Notes under the pieces: model-generated
The model's database searches: none
Seen by the model: the letters and a program-made list of their open reading frames with translations, nothing else
What the model was told of the DNA's origin: nothing
Program-made: the position numbers and the translations under genes
From: Thiomargarita sp.
GTDB taxonomy: Bacteria > Pseudomonadota > Gammaproteobacteria > Beggiatoales > Beggiatoaceae
Reading direction: 5' to 3'
Assembly (NCBI GenBank): GCA_020721005.1
Contig: DYNP01000005.1
Coordinates: 186,001 to 250,000, forward strand
Length of the DNA stretch: 64,000 nt
Part shown: positions 1,899 to 47,747 of the stretch, one piece after another
Numbering within the stretch: the stretch's first letter is position 1
How the letters are laid out: each line of letters begins with the position of its first letter

Positions 1899-2741
1899 TT
1901 AACTGCAAGCCACAAAGGTGGGACAATCAGCCAGTCCAATCACTCGTTCCGATACGCTGCCCATGAGGATTCGATCCAAACCGGTGCGACCGCGATTTCC
2001 AACAATAATCAAATCTACTCCCTTCTCCTTAGCTACTTTGACGATAGTTTCATGGGGCTTTCCTTCCAAAACCAGTCCTTCACAAATATTTCCTTCTTGA
2101 GTTAATACTTCCACAACGCGATCCACGGCTTCCTTGGCCTCAATTCGGCGTTTTTCCCCATGACTAGGTAAAATAACGGATAAAACCACCAGAGGCAGTT
2201 TCAACATTTTAGCCAATTGGACTGCATCTTCTGCTGCATTGTCGGAATAGCGAGAACCGTCGGTAGCAACAAGTATCCGTTTGCAAGGAATTTCTGCAGC
2301 ACGGGGGACCACCAATACTGGACAATGAGCACTTCCTACTGTCTGTACTGTAGAATGACTAACCATCCAACGTGCTATCTTACGTTTGTCCCGCCGACCC
2401 ATCACAATAACATCAGCCGATATTTCTTCCGAGACTGCTAATACCTCTTCTGCAGGCTCACTGCCATGACGCATCCAAATTTGACAAGGAATGCCGATGG
2501 CTTCTGCCTGTTGCCGAACTTGATGTAAAATCAGTTGCGCTTCTTCTTCCGCCTTTTCCACCCAACGTGGGGCAAATGCCTCGTATTCTGCGTTGGTAAT
2601 TACCGTAGTCATGAGATGTAAACTGGCGCCCTGATCCTTTGCCAAATGGAGGGCCAACCGGGTAGCACCGAAACTGAATTCAGAACCATCCGTAGATAAC
2701 AACAACTTTTTAAAGCGACCAATAGGGGATAATTGTGTCAT
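1899..2741 (-). CDS. Tandem-domain universal stress protein (UspA family)
   Basis: The 280-residue protein has two UspA domains, about residues 8-145 and 153-280. The second carries the nucleotide-binding pattern G-x2-G-x9-GS (GNRGRTGLDRILMGSVSERV). The first domain has a degenerate version (MGRRDKRKIARWMVSHS), so probably only the C-terminal half binds ATP. Usp proteins are cytoplasmic and bind ATP or AMP under stress; a specific role cannot be read here. The start is an ATG at 2741 with AAGGA eight bases upstream. It is the last gene of a three-gene operon behind a TauE/SafE transporter and a small membrane protein (16-base gap). Usp genes beside anion transporters are common, which suggests a regulatory link with transport. 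Confidence 0.88.
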   Translation of the reverse strand: MTQLSPIGRFKKLLLSTDGSEFSFGATRLALHLAKDQGASLHLMTTVITNAEYEAFAPRWVEKAEEEAQLILHQVRQQAEAIGIPCQIWMRHGSEPAEEVLAVSEEISADVIVMGRRDKRKIARWMVSHSTVQTVGSAHCPVLVVPRAAEIPCKRILVATDGSRYSDNAAEDAVQLAKMLKLPLVVLSVILPSHGEKRRIEAKEAVDRVVEVLTQEGNICEGLVLEGKPHETIVKVAKEKGVDLIIVGNRGRTGLDRILMGSVSERVIGLADCPTFVACS

Positions 2742-2757
2742 GAGGGGGTTCCTTAAT

Positions 2758-3177
2758 TCAGTGTCCTACAACGAGTATACCGGAAGCGGCTAAAACCAAT
2801 ACACCTATTTCAAGGATAGCCATGATAAAATAAGCCATATCCTTATTACGCAATAATGGGAGTAAAATCCGTAAGTAACAGACAATGGTGACTGCGGATA
2901 AGAAGGCGATACCAATAAAATTCATAAAATCGCCGCGATGGATCAAGGAGACCCAACTCCAACCGGTGTGTACATTGGCCGCTTTTAAATAGTCTCCAAC
3001 CGGCATAACCCAGTATTGGGGGAGTTGTTCTAAAGGGATATGGGGGGGGATAATGCCAAACATGTAGATCAGAAAGGTGATAACCAGTCCTATAAAACCA
3101 ATCTTCATGCCCCAATCTAATACGTTAGCATAAGCTAATTGCTCGGGCGTGGTATAATGTTGAGTGTTTGAGCTCAT
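2758..3177 (-). CDS. Small four-helix membrane protein (DUF1634-like)
   Basis: This 139-residue protein has about four hydrophobic segments (near residues 26-46, 85-105, 112-132 and a shorter one near 55-75). It has no signal peptide and no motif of known enzymes. Small membrane proteins of the DUF1634 type commonly follow TauE/SafE genes, and this one lies 25 bases after such a gene and 16 bases before usp. Assignment to DUF1634 is tentative. The likely role is as accessory subunit or partner of the neighbouring anion exporter in the inner membrane. Confidence 0.7.
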   Translation of the reverse strand: MSSNTQHYTTPEQLAYANVLDWGMKIGFIGLVITFLIYMFGIIPPHIPLEQLPQYWVMPVGDYLKAANVHTGWSWVSLIHRGDFMNFIGIAFLSAVTIVCYLRILLPLLRNKDMAYFIMAILEIGVLVLAASGILVVGH

Positions 3178-3202
3178 AGGTTAATTTTCCGTTAAAAGAG
3201 GG

Positions 3203-4195
3203 TTAATTCCAAATCCCCAAGCCCTTTAATAAGGCTCGAGAACCGGCAAGTAAGAGCATGGTGATGACGACTTTTCGGATGACTGAGGCTTTGGCAACTT
3301 TGAGCAATCGTACTCCAACAACAGATCCCAACATGATACCAACAATTGAGGGTACAGCAATCATGGCTAATACGGCACCCTGATTGAGATAGACCCAAGC
3401 CGCTGAGGTGTCTACAATAGAGAGCATGAATTTGCTGGTGGCTACGGAGACTTTGAGAGGGGCTCCCATGAGTAAATTGAGGACGGGGACATTGGCCCAG
3501 CCGGCGCCCAGTCCAAACATGCCCGCCATAATCCCAATGATGACGAATAAAAATAGTCCTTGTAGAGTACGATGCACCTTCCAATCCACTTCCCGACCAC
3601 TGCCGACGTCGTAGTAAATGCCGTTGATCTGTAAGGCACTGGACAGAGGATCTGCTTTGGAAACGTCCGGAAATTCGGATTTCTTTGCCATCCACATGAG
3701 GGCAACAATGGCTAAAATGGTAATTCCTAATGCAGTTTGTACGACATTAGTAGGTAAAGCCAGTCCCATCATAGCGCCCACGATAGCCGAAGCAGAGGCA
3801 ATCAGAGCCAACGGCAGGGCCAAACGCAGATTGGCCATGCCACTTCGTAACAGTCCTGGTCCTGCAGCAAGAGCACCCGCCAAAGCTACCAGTAATCCCG
3901 CACCTCGTACAAAATCCAGGTGAAAGGGGAAAAATCCTCCGACAATGGGGACAAACAATACACCTCCTCCAACTCCACCTAAAACAGCAACAATGCCGAG
4001 AAAGAAAGTAACTATGAAGAGGATGAGAGGCCACGCCCACCAAGGTAAAGTTCCCGTAGAGGGAGTTGCTACAGTTGTCGTCACCGCCGTTGATATATCT
4101 CCGGTTGCCAGCACCAAACCGGCCATACTCATCAAAATGAGTATGAAAATAGTGGATAATGTCCACTTACCCAGTTTCCAATAGCCTGTGTTCAT
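3203..4195 (-). CDS. TauE/SafE family anion (sulfite/organosulfonate) exporter
   Basis: The 330-residue integral membrane protein has about eight to nine hydrophobic helices. Its two glycine-rich repeat halves are characteristic of TauE/SafE: VAVLGGVGGGVLFVPIV near residue 70, and GIMAGMFGLGAGWANVPVLN near residue 240. The first helix (residues 12-32) resembles a signal anchor. Family members move sulfite, sulfoacetate or related anions across the inner membrane. In a sulfur oxidiser, export of sulfite is a reasonable guess but the substrate cannot be read from the sequence. The start at 4195 has AAGGAG five bases upstream. It is the first gene of an operon with the small membrane protein and usp. 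Confidence 0.88.
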   Translation of the reverse strand: MNTGYWKLGKWTLSTIFILILMSMAGLVLATGDISTAVTTTVATPSTGTLPWWAWPLILFIVTFFLGIVAVLGGVGGGVLFVPIVGGFFPFHLDFVRGAGLLVALAGALAAGPGLLRSGMANLRLALPLALIASASAIVGAMMGLALPTNVVQTALGITILAIVALMWMAKKSEFPDVSKADPLSSALQINGIYYDVGSGREVDWKVHRTLQGLFLFVIIGIMAGMFGLGAGWANVPVLNLLMGAPLKVSVATSKFMLSIVDTSAAWVYLNQGAVLAMIAVPSIVGIMLGSVVGVRLLKVAKASVIRKVVITMLLLAGSRALLKGLGIWN

Positions 4196-46041: not shown

Positions 46042-46613
46042 CCTCAACTTTCTTTGCACAACAAATACTCTTTGGGCTACTCAAAAAATCGATCTTATTT
46101 TTCATTGCACTTCTAACAAAAATATGCCATGCTTATAATAGCCTGTTTTCAAATTGCCACTTTTCTGGACTTTACAAACCCAGACCGTGTGTGAAGCAGT
46201 TCGGCGTATTTTGTCTGCAAATCGGCAAGATAGGTACTGTTATCCCTTTCGGATAGCTCATCAGGTAGAGCAGTTGACTCAAAATCAACGGGTAGCAGGT
46301 TCGAATCCTGCTCTGAAATCCTCCTCATTTATGATCCACCGGGAACGTTTAACCCTGTTCCCTCCTCACTTCCTTGGATAATTTACTGTTTTTCAAGTGA
46401 ATTTATCTGACAGGTGACAACGTTTGTATGCTCATGGGTATGATGGACTCGAATTTTTCTAACCAACCCTGTAGTTATGGACAGATCAATTCCAGCTCTT
46501 CACAAATGATCATCCCGTTGCTCACCTGAGGAAGTGAATTTTTATCTTGAAATCAAATACATCGACAGCAACAATGACAGATTCTTTTACCTCAATTTTT
46601 GAGGAAATTAAAC
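46042..46613. other. Intergenic region holding the tRNA
   Basis: Apart from the tRNA at 46247-46319, this 572-base stretch has no convincing gene. A 75-codon frame over the tRNA is the usual translation artefact. A GAGGAA site at the right end belongs to the SPFH gene. Confidence 0.5.
46247..46319 (+). tRNA. tRNA-like gene with CAA anticodon on a class I body
   Basis: All four stems fold. The acceptor stem TTTCGGA pairs with TCTGAAA (one G-U). The D stem is GCTC/GAGC with A14, G18G19 and A21. The anticodon stem GTTGA/TCAAC has loop CTCAAAA, so the anticodon is CAA at 46280-46282. The variable loop is five bases (GGGTA). The T stem GCAGG/CCTGC has loop TTCGAAT. CAA is a leucine anticodon, but bacterial tRNA-Leu is class II with a long variable arm, and this body looks like tRNA-Lys. 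Position 1 is T instead of the usual G, and CCA is not encoded. It may be a recoded tRNA, a tRNA-like regulator or a decaying copy. Confidence 0.7.
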
Positions 46614-47747
46614 ATGATTCGTAGAGTCATCGTCAAAAAAAATGAACGGGGGATTTTATTCAAAGAAGGCGACTTTATACGCTTTTTAGGACCAGACACT
46701 TACCACTTCTTTGACCCCTTTAAACGGATTACCGTAGAAACTTATGACACCTCGTCCCCAGAATTTCAGCATTCCCTGTTGGATTTTTGGCTCAAACACC
46801 ATCCAGACCTTATCAATTCCCACCTAACACCGGTTGAATTGACCGATCAACAAGTGGCCCTGGTTTATCAACATCAACATTTGGTCAGCATCTTACCTCC
46901 CAATACTCGTATTGCCTATTGGAAAGGGACCGTTGATGTGCAAGTGGAATTATTTGATATCAGCACCAACTTTCAAATCAATCCGGAAAAAGCCAAGTTA
47001 TTGGTGCACACTCAAAACCCCAAATTGAAAAAATTGGTCAATCAATTTGTTTATTATCAAAAGGTTCCAGAACATCAGGTGGGTTTATTGTACCTGAATG
47101 GCCAACACGTTGGCATTTTATCTCCTGGCCTACATGCCTATTGGAATTTTAACCATGAGTTGAAAACAACCATTTGGGACACTCGATTGCAAGAAATAGA
47201 AATGACTGGCCAGGAAATTCTGACCAAAGATAAGGTAACCTTGCGAGTCAATTGCACGTTATTCTGTCAAATACAAGATATTGTTCGTGCAATCAGTGTG
47301 TTACCCGATATCAACGACCACTTGTACAAAGAAATGCAATTTGGGTTACGAGCTGCAATTGGTACACGCACATTAGACGAGTTATTGGAGAATAAAACGC
47401 TGATTGATGAGCAAGTATTTGCTTATCTGCGTGAAAAAACAGCGGATATGAGTATTCTTATCAAATCGGTGGGTGTCAAAGATCTCATTTTGCCAGGAGA
47501 AATGAGAACTATTTTAAATCGGGTAGTTGAGGCAGAAAAGAGTGCGCAAGCCAATGTGATTCGTCGCCGCGAGGAAACCGCTGCCACTCGTTCCTTATTA
47601 AACACTGCCAAGGTGATGGAAGGCAATCCCGTTGCTCTGCGTTTGAAGGAATTAGAAACTCTGGAAAAAGTCACTGAAAAGATAGATAAAATCTCTGTAT
47701 TCAGTGGGTTGGAAGGATTGATGAAAGATCTCATCAATATCAGATAA
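46614..47747 (+). CDS. SPFH / band 7 family protein without membrane anchor
   Basis: From ATG 46614 (GAGGAA eight bases upstream) the protein has 377 residues. The band 7 domain spans about 165-320, with TKDKVTLRVNCTLFCQI and the downstream RTILNRVVEAEKSAQANVIRRREE helix. Before it are three similar modules of the kind that normally opens a slipin. Each is a basic or polar lead followed by xxLxxxGxxxxxLxPxxxxYW; they lie near 8-40, 85-125 and 150-190. No hydrophobic anchor is present, so membrane association must be peripheral or absent. SPFH proteins form oligomeric membrane scaffolds. It converges with fbp on a shared terminator. Confidence 0.85.
   Translation: MIRRVIVKKNERGILFKEGDFIRFLGPDTYHFFDPFKRITVETYDTSSPEFQHSLLDFWLKHHPDLINSHLTPVELTDQQVALVYQHQHLVSILPPNTRIAYWKGTVDVQVELFDISTNFQINPEKAKLLVHTQNPKLKKLVNQFVYYQKVPEHQVGLLYLNGQHVGILSPGLHAYWNFNHELKTTIWDTRLQEIEMTGQEILTKDKVTLRVNCTLFCQIQDIVRAISVLPDINDHLYKEMQFGLRAAIGTRTLDELLENKTLIDEQVFAYLREKTADMSILIKSVGVKDLILPGEMRTILNRVVEAEKSAQANVIRRREETAATRSLLNTAKVMEGNPVALRLKELETLEKVTEKIDKISVFSGLEGLMKDLINIR

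What the first reader, a model, noticed from the sequence alone, without database searches (positions are those of the whole stretch)
46247..46319. tRNA with Leu anticodon CAA on a Lys-like class I body
The fold is complete and all usual invariant bases are present, but CAA on a short variable loop is not a normal bacterial tRNA-Leu. The body resembles tRNA-Lys with CTT changed to CAA. Position 1 is T and CCA is missing. If charged with lysine it would misread UUG codons; if not, it may be a regulator.
Basis: partly seen in the sequence, partly recalled or inferred. Interest (0 to 1): 0.6.

Follow-up and report, generated by a model that had tools for sequence, protein, structure and literature searches.

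The report
tRNA mimic beside an RNA-repair gene
What looks like a leucine tRNA on the wrong body is best read as a small RNA that imitates a tRNA, encoded just ahead of a ring-forming (slipin) protein gene of a kind that many bacteria keep next to their broken-RNA repair enzymes, and not a tRNA used to make proteins.

Summary
The tRNA-shaped gene at 46247-46319 (+) is real: Rfam tRNA 63.7 bits, CAA anticodon, short variable loop, U1, no CCA. It is unlikely to be a decoding tRNA-Leu or tRNA-Lys. It belongs to a family of tRNA mimics encoded upstream of a soluble SPFH/slipin gene (window 46599-47747). Of 84 slipin leaders examined (two are one contig fetched twice), 73 hold a parsable mimic. Across the family the tRNA body is conserved (anticodon stem 60-61 of 61 distinct rows at every pair). 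The working ends are not: 28 anticodon triplets in 64 seven-base loops, acceptor pairs 1-3 at shuffle level, CCA at the right place in at most 16 of 73. In 70 of 80 related loci the RNA ligase RtcB lies nearby; in three loci RtcR stands divergent. A covarying two-hairpin RNA precedes the mimics (73 of 80 loci; no significant Rfam match in two tested); the window keeps only its second hairpin. Most likely it is the RNA partner of a slipin-based tRNA-damage response, as Burroughs and Aravind proposed in 2016 (recalled; paper not held). How it acts is inferred. The window's genome has a normal tRNA-Leu(CAA), has RtcB elsewhere, and shows no RtcR by Pfam.

The parts
46247..46319 (+). tRNA-like RNA gene: class I cloverleaf, loop CTCAAAA (anticodon CAA), U1, U73, no CCA
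   Evidence: ARAGORN and Rfam RF00005 63.7 bits; member of the family aligned
46203..46237 (+). hairpin (8-base loop TGCAAATC closed by TGTC/GGCA): remnant of the second hairpin of the conserved two-hairpin leader RNA
   Evidence: local alignment to the L166 leader scores 38, reached by 0 of 2000 random sequences of like dinucleotide make-up; two L061 leaders 7 and 8 of 2000; four other leaders 128 to 1018 of 2000; summed over 7 leaders 2 of 2000. RNA fold of 46200-46240 z -2.51. The covariance model R1 does not recognise it
46181..46202 (+). place where the first hairpin of the leader RNA would lie; diverged, not recognised
   Evidence: R1 finds nothing convincing; inference from position
46320..46598 (+). 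spacer between tRNA-like RNA and slipin ORF; no terminator-like site found
46599..47747 (+). SPFH/Band-7 (slipin-family) protein gene, 382 aa from TTG 46599 (ATG at 46614 more likely, by eye); three tandem beta units, SPFH core, long helix, no N-terminal membrane helix apparent
   Evidence: Pfam Band_7 97.4 bits; AlphaFold model pLDDT 80.8; partner of tRNA-like genes in relatives

Best explanation
The gene makes a tRNA-like RNA that does not decode. It is the RNA member of a conserved module: (often) a two-hairpin leader RNA, then one or more tRNA mimics, then a soluble slipin (SPFH) gene, often beside the RNA ligase gene rtcB. SHOWN: the fold; the family; the link to slipin and RtcB; selection on the body (D arm, T arm, anticodon stem, inner acceptor pairs) but not on the anticodon triplet or the acceptor tip. 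INFERRED: the RNA is recognised by its L-shaped body, which all tRNAs share, and serves as a resident scaffold or competitor for the slipin oligomer and the repair enzymes, keeping them assembled until real, broken tRNAs arrive after ribonuclease or translation stress. In the window's lineage the module has shrunk to one mimic plus slipin; RtcB is encoded elsewhere. I hold the identity at about 0.9 and the scaffold/competitor mechanism at about 0.35.
For: Mimic then slipin in eight further relatives (L160-L162, L164-L168) and across Gamma- and Betaproteobacteria: 73 of 84 leaders parse a mimic. Anticodon stem paired in 60-61 of 61 distinct rows at all five pairs (shuffle means 28-58), acceptor pairs 4-7 in 60-61 of 61, but pairs 1-3 only 12, 15 and 15 of 61 against shuffle means 12.6, 11.5 and 13.4. 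28 triplets in 64 seven-base loops. A second, upstream mimic often has no anticodon loop: 26 of 53 foldable arms end in a tetraloop, 7 in a seven-base loop. One leader plus mimic stands without slipin (L169), which favours a role in trans. RtcB within the fetched flank of 70 of 80 slipin loci. RtcR divergent from slipin in Burkholderia, Citrobacter and Photobacterium; sigma-54-like TGGCACGCTYCTSGCW in the first two and in an E. coli record; RlaP repair nucleotidyltransferase after slipin in Citrobacter. In Anabaena a slipin gene, rtcB and a 26-tRNA operon are in one regulon, released by translation inhibitors (PMC10272220, passages).
Against: No expression, binding or charging data. In the window's genome no RtcR is found, RtcB is not next to slipin, no promoter above chance is seen, and the leader RNA is half lost. 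The window's own copy pairs along the whole acceptor stem, so its tip is less degenerate than the family's, and its core is close to true tRNA-Lys. Nothing tested shows that slipin binds RNA. The module is dispensable: 18 of 35 Xanthomonas species lack the leader, and 8 of 369 genomes of the class gave a credible R1 match. The survey of 84 started from slipin similarity, so its co-occurrence counts are not a random sample.
Confidence: 0.55

Rival explanations
1. Cis-acting leader: the tRNA fold in the slipin mRNA leader is cut by tRNA-processing enzymes (RNase P, RNase Z/E) and so sets the 5' end, stability or translation of slipin mRNA. The RNA itself has no trans role.
For: Place about 200-680 bases before slipin on the same strand; body features kept while both tRNA ends drift fits recognition by processing enzymes; hairpin-like repeats follow the mimic in Xanthomonas leaders (by eye).
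Against: Tandem mimics, three repeated [leader + mimic pair] units in one Beggiatoa contig, mimics without an anticodon loop, and a leader plus mimic with no slipin in the 18 kb fetched (L169). I lowered this rival from 0.22 to 0.20 when L169 was rechecked.
Confidence: 0.2
2. Decoy or bait for anticodon nucleases: toxins cut the mimics instead of real tRNAs, and changing anticodons follow changing toxins.
For: Anticodon differs among Xanthomonas species with nearly the same body: 3.3 changes per anticodon site against 1.59 in spacer and 0.90 in the rest of the body. Hughes et al. [quoted passage not shown]
Against: 41 of 345 spacer triplets change as fast as the anticodon, so drift is enough; many upstream mimics lack any anticodon loop. 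In Salmonella YrlA itself was not cut (same passages).
Confidence: 0.15
3. Translating tRNA: charged (Lys, Leu or other), it reads UUG and recodes it or acts as a reserve tRNA under stress.
For: Complete cloverleaf with seven acceptor pairs; core 83-86% like true tRNA-Lys of other families; sets of ordinary-looking tRNAs with CCA lie before the module in some Betaproteobacteria.
Against: U73 and no CCA; a normal tRNA-Leu(CAA) exists; relatives carry 28 triplets, among them TTA and TCA, which would read stop codons; acceptor tip unpaired in most relatives.
Confidence: 0.05
4. Decayed tRNA pseudogene without function.
For: CCA and discriminator lost; single copy; leader half lost; patchy in some groups.
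Against: 63.7 bits and a perfect anticodon stem; selection on stems across the family; same place before slipin in distant relatives.
Confidence: 0.05

Closest known systems
tRNA-like RNA paired with SPFH/Band-7 proteins in bacterial RNA-repair operons (Burroughs and Aravind 2016, doi 10.1093/nar/gkw722; recalled abstract, paper not held)
   Same: tRNA-like RNA next to an SPFH gene; relatives of the window locus have RtcB, RtcR or RlaP beside them
   Different: I could not check which sequences, loops or leader elements they described. The window locus has neither RtcB nor RtcR beside it
YrlA/Y RNA with Rsr (Ro60) in the Salmonella rsr-yrlBA-rtcBA operon (PMC7790460, passages)
   Same: non-coding RNA with a tRNA-like domain in an RNA-repair operon
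   Different: there the partner is a Ro60-like protein; here it is an SPFH protein, and the RNA is a whole cloverleaf
Anabaena trn operon and TrcR regulon (PMC10272220, passages)
   Same: slipin gene, rtcB, rimK and a 26-gene tRNA operon under one stress regulator
   Different: separate loci, a repressor instead of RtcR, tRNAs presented as tRNAs
tRNA-Other of Bacillus cereus (recalled, no call)
   Same: tRNA-like RNA outside normal decoding, raised in stationary phase
   Different: recalled as charged by lysyl-tRNA synthetases; no slipin link known to me
Major vault protein and vault RNA (structure rows)
   Same: tandem beta units, SPFH-like shoulder and long helix in a soluble protein that belongs to a ribonucleoprotein
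   Different: only three beta units, and taken alone the first of them resembles the SPFH1 unit of prohibitin/HflK more (Z 5-6.8) than vault repeats (Z 3-4.2)

Membership tests
Bacterial tRNA-Leu(CAA) | CAA anticodon | tested here: met
Bacterial tRNA-Leu(CAA) | class II body with long variable arm; A73 and CCA (recalled rule) | tested here: not met
   variable loop of five bases, U73, CCT follows; the genome's real tRNA-Leu(CAA) is class II
tRNA-Lys | UUU or CUU anticodon and A73 (recalled rule) | tested here: not met
   CAA and U73; 70% identity to own tRNA-Lys(CTT), though the core matches foreign tRNA-Lys at 83-86%
tRNA-like RNA of slipin (SPFH/Band-7) modules | tRNA cloverleaf encoded on the same strand directly before a slipin-family gene | tested here: met
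   46247-46319 before 46599-47747; same order in 73 of 84 leaders, window included
tRNA-like RNA of slipin (SPFH/Band-7) modules | sequence kinship of the RNA itself | tested here: met
   alignment of 18 mimics, 24 invariant columns, mean column identity 76%; 89% to G031 and G016 copies over 63 bases
tRNA-like RNA of slipin (SPFH/Band-7) modules | two-hairpin leader RNA upstream (my observation, not a published criterion that I know of) | tested here: inconclusive
   R1 finds nothing convincing in the window leader, but the second hairpin is recognisable
RtcR-controlled rtc RNA-repair operon | rtcB next to the slipin gene | tested here: not met
   RtcB lies on contig C67, slipin on C108; in relatives 70 of 80 have RtcB nearby
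RtcR-controlled rtc RNA-repair operon | rtcR in the genome | tested here: not met
   PF06956: no match in the own genome (0 of 1), positive in the E. coli control
Y RNA (YrlA type) | Ro60/Rsr partner and Y-RNA stem | not tested
   no TROVE search of the own genome was made
Vault ribonucleoprotein | MVP-like repeats before the SPFH core | tested here: inconclusive
   full model: 9z4w Z 11.7, 233 aligned, rmsd 14.3; N-terminal part alone: MVP Z 3-4.2, SPFH1 units Z 5-6.8, both mostly over the first unit

The most novel reading that the evidence does not exclude
Bacteria keep a body-only tRNA mimic: an RNA under selection for the shape common to all tRNAs but released from both ends by which tRNAs work. 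Together with a covarying two-hairpin RNA it forms a small ribonucleoprotein with a soluble, membrane-free SPFH protein of vault-like layout, a bacterial counterpart of vault plus vault RNA, which gathers broken tRNAs for RtcB whatever their identity.
Probability: 0.18. Interest if true: 0.85.

Novelty: new variant of a known kind. Interest (0 to 1): 0.6.

Why it matters
It removes a supposed miscoding tRNA and puts in its place an RNA that an annotation tool (ARAGORN here) names Leu, Met, Lys or stop depending on a drifting triplet; such genes may well stand in public genomes as real tRNAs. It makes the role of tRNA-like RNAs in RNA repair testable: which parts of a tRNA does the repair machinery read? 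It also gives a search model for a two-hairpin RNA that had no significant match in Rfam 15 in the two leaders tested, and that finds such modules without using protein similarity.

Tried and rejected
Misreading tRNA, Lys or Leu: rejected as main reading (see rivals). Positive selection on the anticodon: pairwise comparison suggested it (anticodon 0.54 against spacer 0.13 in the 24 pairs of one divergence bin, 88 pairs in all), but a parsimony count on 17 Xanthomonas leaders showed 41 of 345 spacer triplets just as fast, so I claim drift or more. A first version of that count missed loci on the minus strand and had a one-base frame slip; it is replaced. A first attempt at parsing loops failed through a too strict pattern, repaired. 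RtcR/sigma-54 control of the window locus: no RtcR, one sigma-70-like site where shuffles give 1.6. Viral origin: 12 pattern stretches, 0 relatives in viral contigs. Rfam names for the leader RNA: nothing but tRNA and chance matches (window; L166). Single-sequence folding of the leader RNA is weak support: L166 z -1.15 (24 of 200 shuffles as good), L061 z -2.06 (8 of 200); the number of pairs with a double change (6) was reached by 63 of 500 shuffles. R1 places taken as false: 12 weaker ones in the relatives search (L222, L224-L233, L236: no slipin, no mimic in the flanks) and 5 of 13 in the class survey (L244-L248, E 7.5e-7 to 5.3e-6: no slipin or RtcB by tblastn, two implausible relaxed ARAGORN calls). 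Vault membership: not shown; Foldseek's own top rows for the N-terminal part were meaningless (TM about 0.15). Near-identical DNA of the Citrobacter locus in E. coli genomes: no match. Rows left out: of 84 leaders 11 did not parse (5 without a T arm in the fetched stretch, 6 of other shape); of 73, 12 gave no upstream T arm and 8 no usable arm; L061 and L164 are the same contig and both count in the 84, 73 and 64. L192 (split contig) was dropped.

Full report
1. The window has one tRNA gene, 46247-46319 (+) (ARAGORN; Rfam tRNA 63.7 bits, E 1.7e-11; fold z -2.31). The loop is CTCAAAA, so the anticodon is CAA. The variable loop is five bases, base 1 and base 73 are T, and CCT follows. The genome has 49 tRNA places; ARAGORN on them gives 49 genes, among them an ordinary class II tRNA-Leu(CAA) on contig C67, and the window's gene as the only other CAA. 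38 of the 49 end in CCA. The 'lysine body' is half right: 51 of 73 columns equal own tRNA-Lys(CTT), while ordinary tRNA-Lys(CTT) genes of other families match the core at 83-86% (L038, L040, L041).

2. Relatives lead away from decoding. A search of 57 relatives found matches in 45, many of them ordinary Lys, Asn, Phe or other tRNAs. The best three, 86-89%, are tRNA-like genes in genomes of the same family. Further ones (80-85%) mostly lack CCA, are named Met, Ile, Phe, Ser, Lys, Gly or nothing by ARAGORN, and often stand in tandem with 0-4 bases between the called ends.

3. The usual neighbour is a slipin gene. In the window, L160, L164 and L165 the mimics lie just before an SPFH/Band-7 gene on the same strand; slipin is also found in L161, L162, L163 (cut by the contig end), L166, L167 and L168, but not in L169, where 18 kb around a mimic and leader RNA hold no slipin even at E 10 (only short chance matches). 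I then fetched 80 loci that encode relatives of the window slipin (134 were found, the best 80 kept). With the window, L160, L164 and L165 this makes 84 leaders; L164 and L061 proved to be one contig. 73 of 84 parse a full mimic next to the gene. The 11 others are told under Tried and rejected.

4. What is conserved and what is not. In the 64 mimics with a seven-base loop there are 28 anticodon triplets; position 37 is A in 57 and position 33 is T in 52. In 61 distinct rows the five anticodon-stem pairs form in 60-61 rows (shuffle means 28-58) and acceptor pairs 4-7 in 60-61, but acceptor pairs 1-3 in 12, 15 and 15 (shuffle means 12.6, 11.5, 13.4). CCA stands after a discriminator base in 5 of 73 and directly after position 72 in 11 of 73. 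The window is less degenerate: all seven acceptor pairs form. So the L-shaped body is selected, and the two ends by which a tRNA works are not. In Xanthomonas, 17 of 35 species have the leader; the anticodon changed 3.3 times per site on a tree of 17 leaders, spacer 1.59, rest of the body 0.90, and 41 of 345 spacer triplets changed as often. Fast drift explains this; arms-race selection is not shown.

5. A second mimic often lies just upstream. Of 73 leaders, 53 gave an arm that could be folded: 26 end in a tetraloop (12 of them GNRA), 9 in three bases, 8 in six, 7 in seven (two of these the same contig), 3 in five. Arms with a tetraloop have no anticodon loop.

6. A structured element before the mimics. 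Here lies a 55-75-base sequence, CAGCGG...CYGGYGCGC...GCGTATGCC, that folds as two adjacent hairpins. On 39 sequences 98.8% of cells pair (shuffles 87.6%), 63 cells changed on both sides (shuffles 14.9, 0 of 500 as high), covariation score 0.421 against 0.188, and sliding the partners destroys it; the count of pairs with a double change, 6, is not exceptional (63 of 500). Model R1 finds it in 73 of 80 slipin loci; 32 of these loci helped to build it, and 41 of the 48 others match. On 115 relatives it hit 26 genomes at E 1e-3; the strong new places that I opened with ARAGORN (L216-L220, L235, and the weaker L223) all have a mimic and a slipin gene, 12 weaker places have neither. On 369 genomes of the class it hit 13 at E 1e-5: of the 8 with E up to 2.9e-7, six show slipin in the fetched flank (one of them G024, a training genome), one the first codons of slipin at the locus edge (L242, read by eye), one RtcB (L221). 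The other 5 look false. No significant Rfam match was found in the two leaders tested. In the window R1 fails, but 46203-46237 keeps the second hairpin: it aligns to the L166 leader with a score reached by 0 of 2000 random sequences and to two L061 leaders with 7 and 8 of 2000, to four others no better than 128 to 1018 of 2000 (together 2 of 2000), and folds with z -2.51.

7. The link to RNA repair. RtcB lies in the fetched flank of 70 of 80 slipin loci, RtcR in 0 of 80. In four records from the plasmid collection that I opened (of 9 found), RtcR is divergent from slipin in 3 (Burkholderia multivorans, Citrobacter freundii, Photobacterium), RtcB is near in 2, and the nucleotidyltransferase after slipin in Citrobacter is RlaP, 'RNA repair pathway' (PF10127, 323 bits). 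Sigma-54-like sites precede the leader in Burkholderia, Citrobacter and the E. coli record; the same pattern found none in Photobacterium's leader. ARAGORN finds mimics in the Burkholderia and Photobacterium leaders, and R1 matches both. In the two enterobacterial leaders neither does; only a T-arm-like stretch is visible (by eye). An SPFH gene inside the rtc locus of Pseudomonas aeruginosa is in print (PMC13086221, one passage). The window's genome has RtcB on another contig and no RtcR by Pfam.

8. The protein. The window slipin has Pfam Band_7 at 155-326 and no obvious membrane helix at its start (by eye). The model (pLDDT 80.8, pTM 0.55) shows three five-strand units, the SPFH core and a long helix. 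Units 2 and 3 resemble each other in sequence (z 7.1), 1 and 3 (z 5.0), 1 and 2 not (0.7). Best structural relatives are stomatin SPFH domains (8gn9 Z 15.8); among the listed rows only vault proteins reach from the first unit to the helix (9z4w Z 11.7, 233 aligned, rmsd 14.3; 9r86 Z 10.6, 255 aligned, rmsd 15.4). In the N-terminal part alone (pLDDT 93.0) the first unit is closer to SPFH1 units of prohibitin, erlin and HflK (Z 5-6.8 over about 43 residues) than to vault repeats (Z 3-4.2); such Z values are low. The vault likeness is therefore one of layout.

9. Literature. The match with the 'novel tRNA-like molecule' of SPFH/Band-7 repair modules in Burroughs and Aravind 2016 is from memory of the abstract; the paper is not held, and I saw only its title in a reference list. 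Searches for slipin with RtcB, RtcR, tRNA-like, tRNA genes or leader, and for RtcB with SPFH or tRNA-like, returned no paper that, from the listing or the passages I saw, describes the leader RNA or the loop variation; most subscription papers are outside that library. From PMC7790460 (passages) I take the suggestion that a tRNA-like RNA may compete for an anticodon nuclease; from PMC10272220 (passages) that Anabaena keeps slipin, rtcB and a 26-tRNA operon in one stress regulon.

10. Verdict. A real gene, and most likely not a misreading tRNA: a tRNA-like RNA of a slipin module allied to RNA repair, in a reduced form. The kind is known; the freed ends, the loopless partners and the two-hairpin leader RNA are, as far as I could check, added here.

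Noticed in passing
L062, L063, L065, L066, L067, L068, L070, L089 upstream of slipin: Arrays of 5-15 same-strand tRNA calls within 2.5 kb, mostly with CCA and mostly one per isoacceptor type, lie before the leader RNA, mimics and slipin in Betaproteobacterial or related MAGs and one MAG labelled Verrucomicrobia; several also have rtcB beside them. They look like a reserve tRNA set.
   Followed up: partly
L061 (= L164) 2351-3670: Three tandem units, each a two-hairpin leader RNA followed by a pair of tRNA mimics, before one slipin gene in Beggiatoa sp. SZUA-411.
   Followed up: partly
L169 9616-9797 (-) (G007:C85): Leader RNA plus one mimic with an 8-base anticodon loop and no slipin in the 18 kb fetched; the same genome has another leader with slipin (L235). 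An orphan copy that speaks for a trans role.
   Followed up: partly
L235 (G007:C89): A second locus in the same genome, with slipin, whose mimic has a class II body with CAA anticodon: a Leu-like body in the same role.
   Followed up: no
L160 379-6671 (-): Divergent from the mimic/slipin unit: a MoxR-type AAA ATPase, four proteins without Pfam match and a radical SAM protein in one run.
   Followed up: no
L165 9619-12445 (+): Divergent from the mimic/slipin unit: GNAT plus DUF3335 peptidase-C39-like protein and a RimK-like ligase; the Anabaena TrcR regulon also holds GNAT and RimK genes.
   Followed up: no
L168 upstream of the leader RNA; L163: A consensus sigma-70 promoter (TTGACA, 17 bases, TATAAT) just before the leader RNA in L168 and a near one in L163 (by eye), unlike the sigma-54-like sites in L249-L251.
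   Followed up: no
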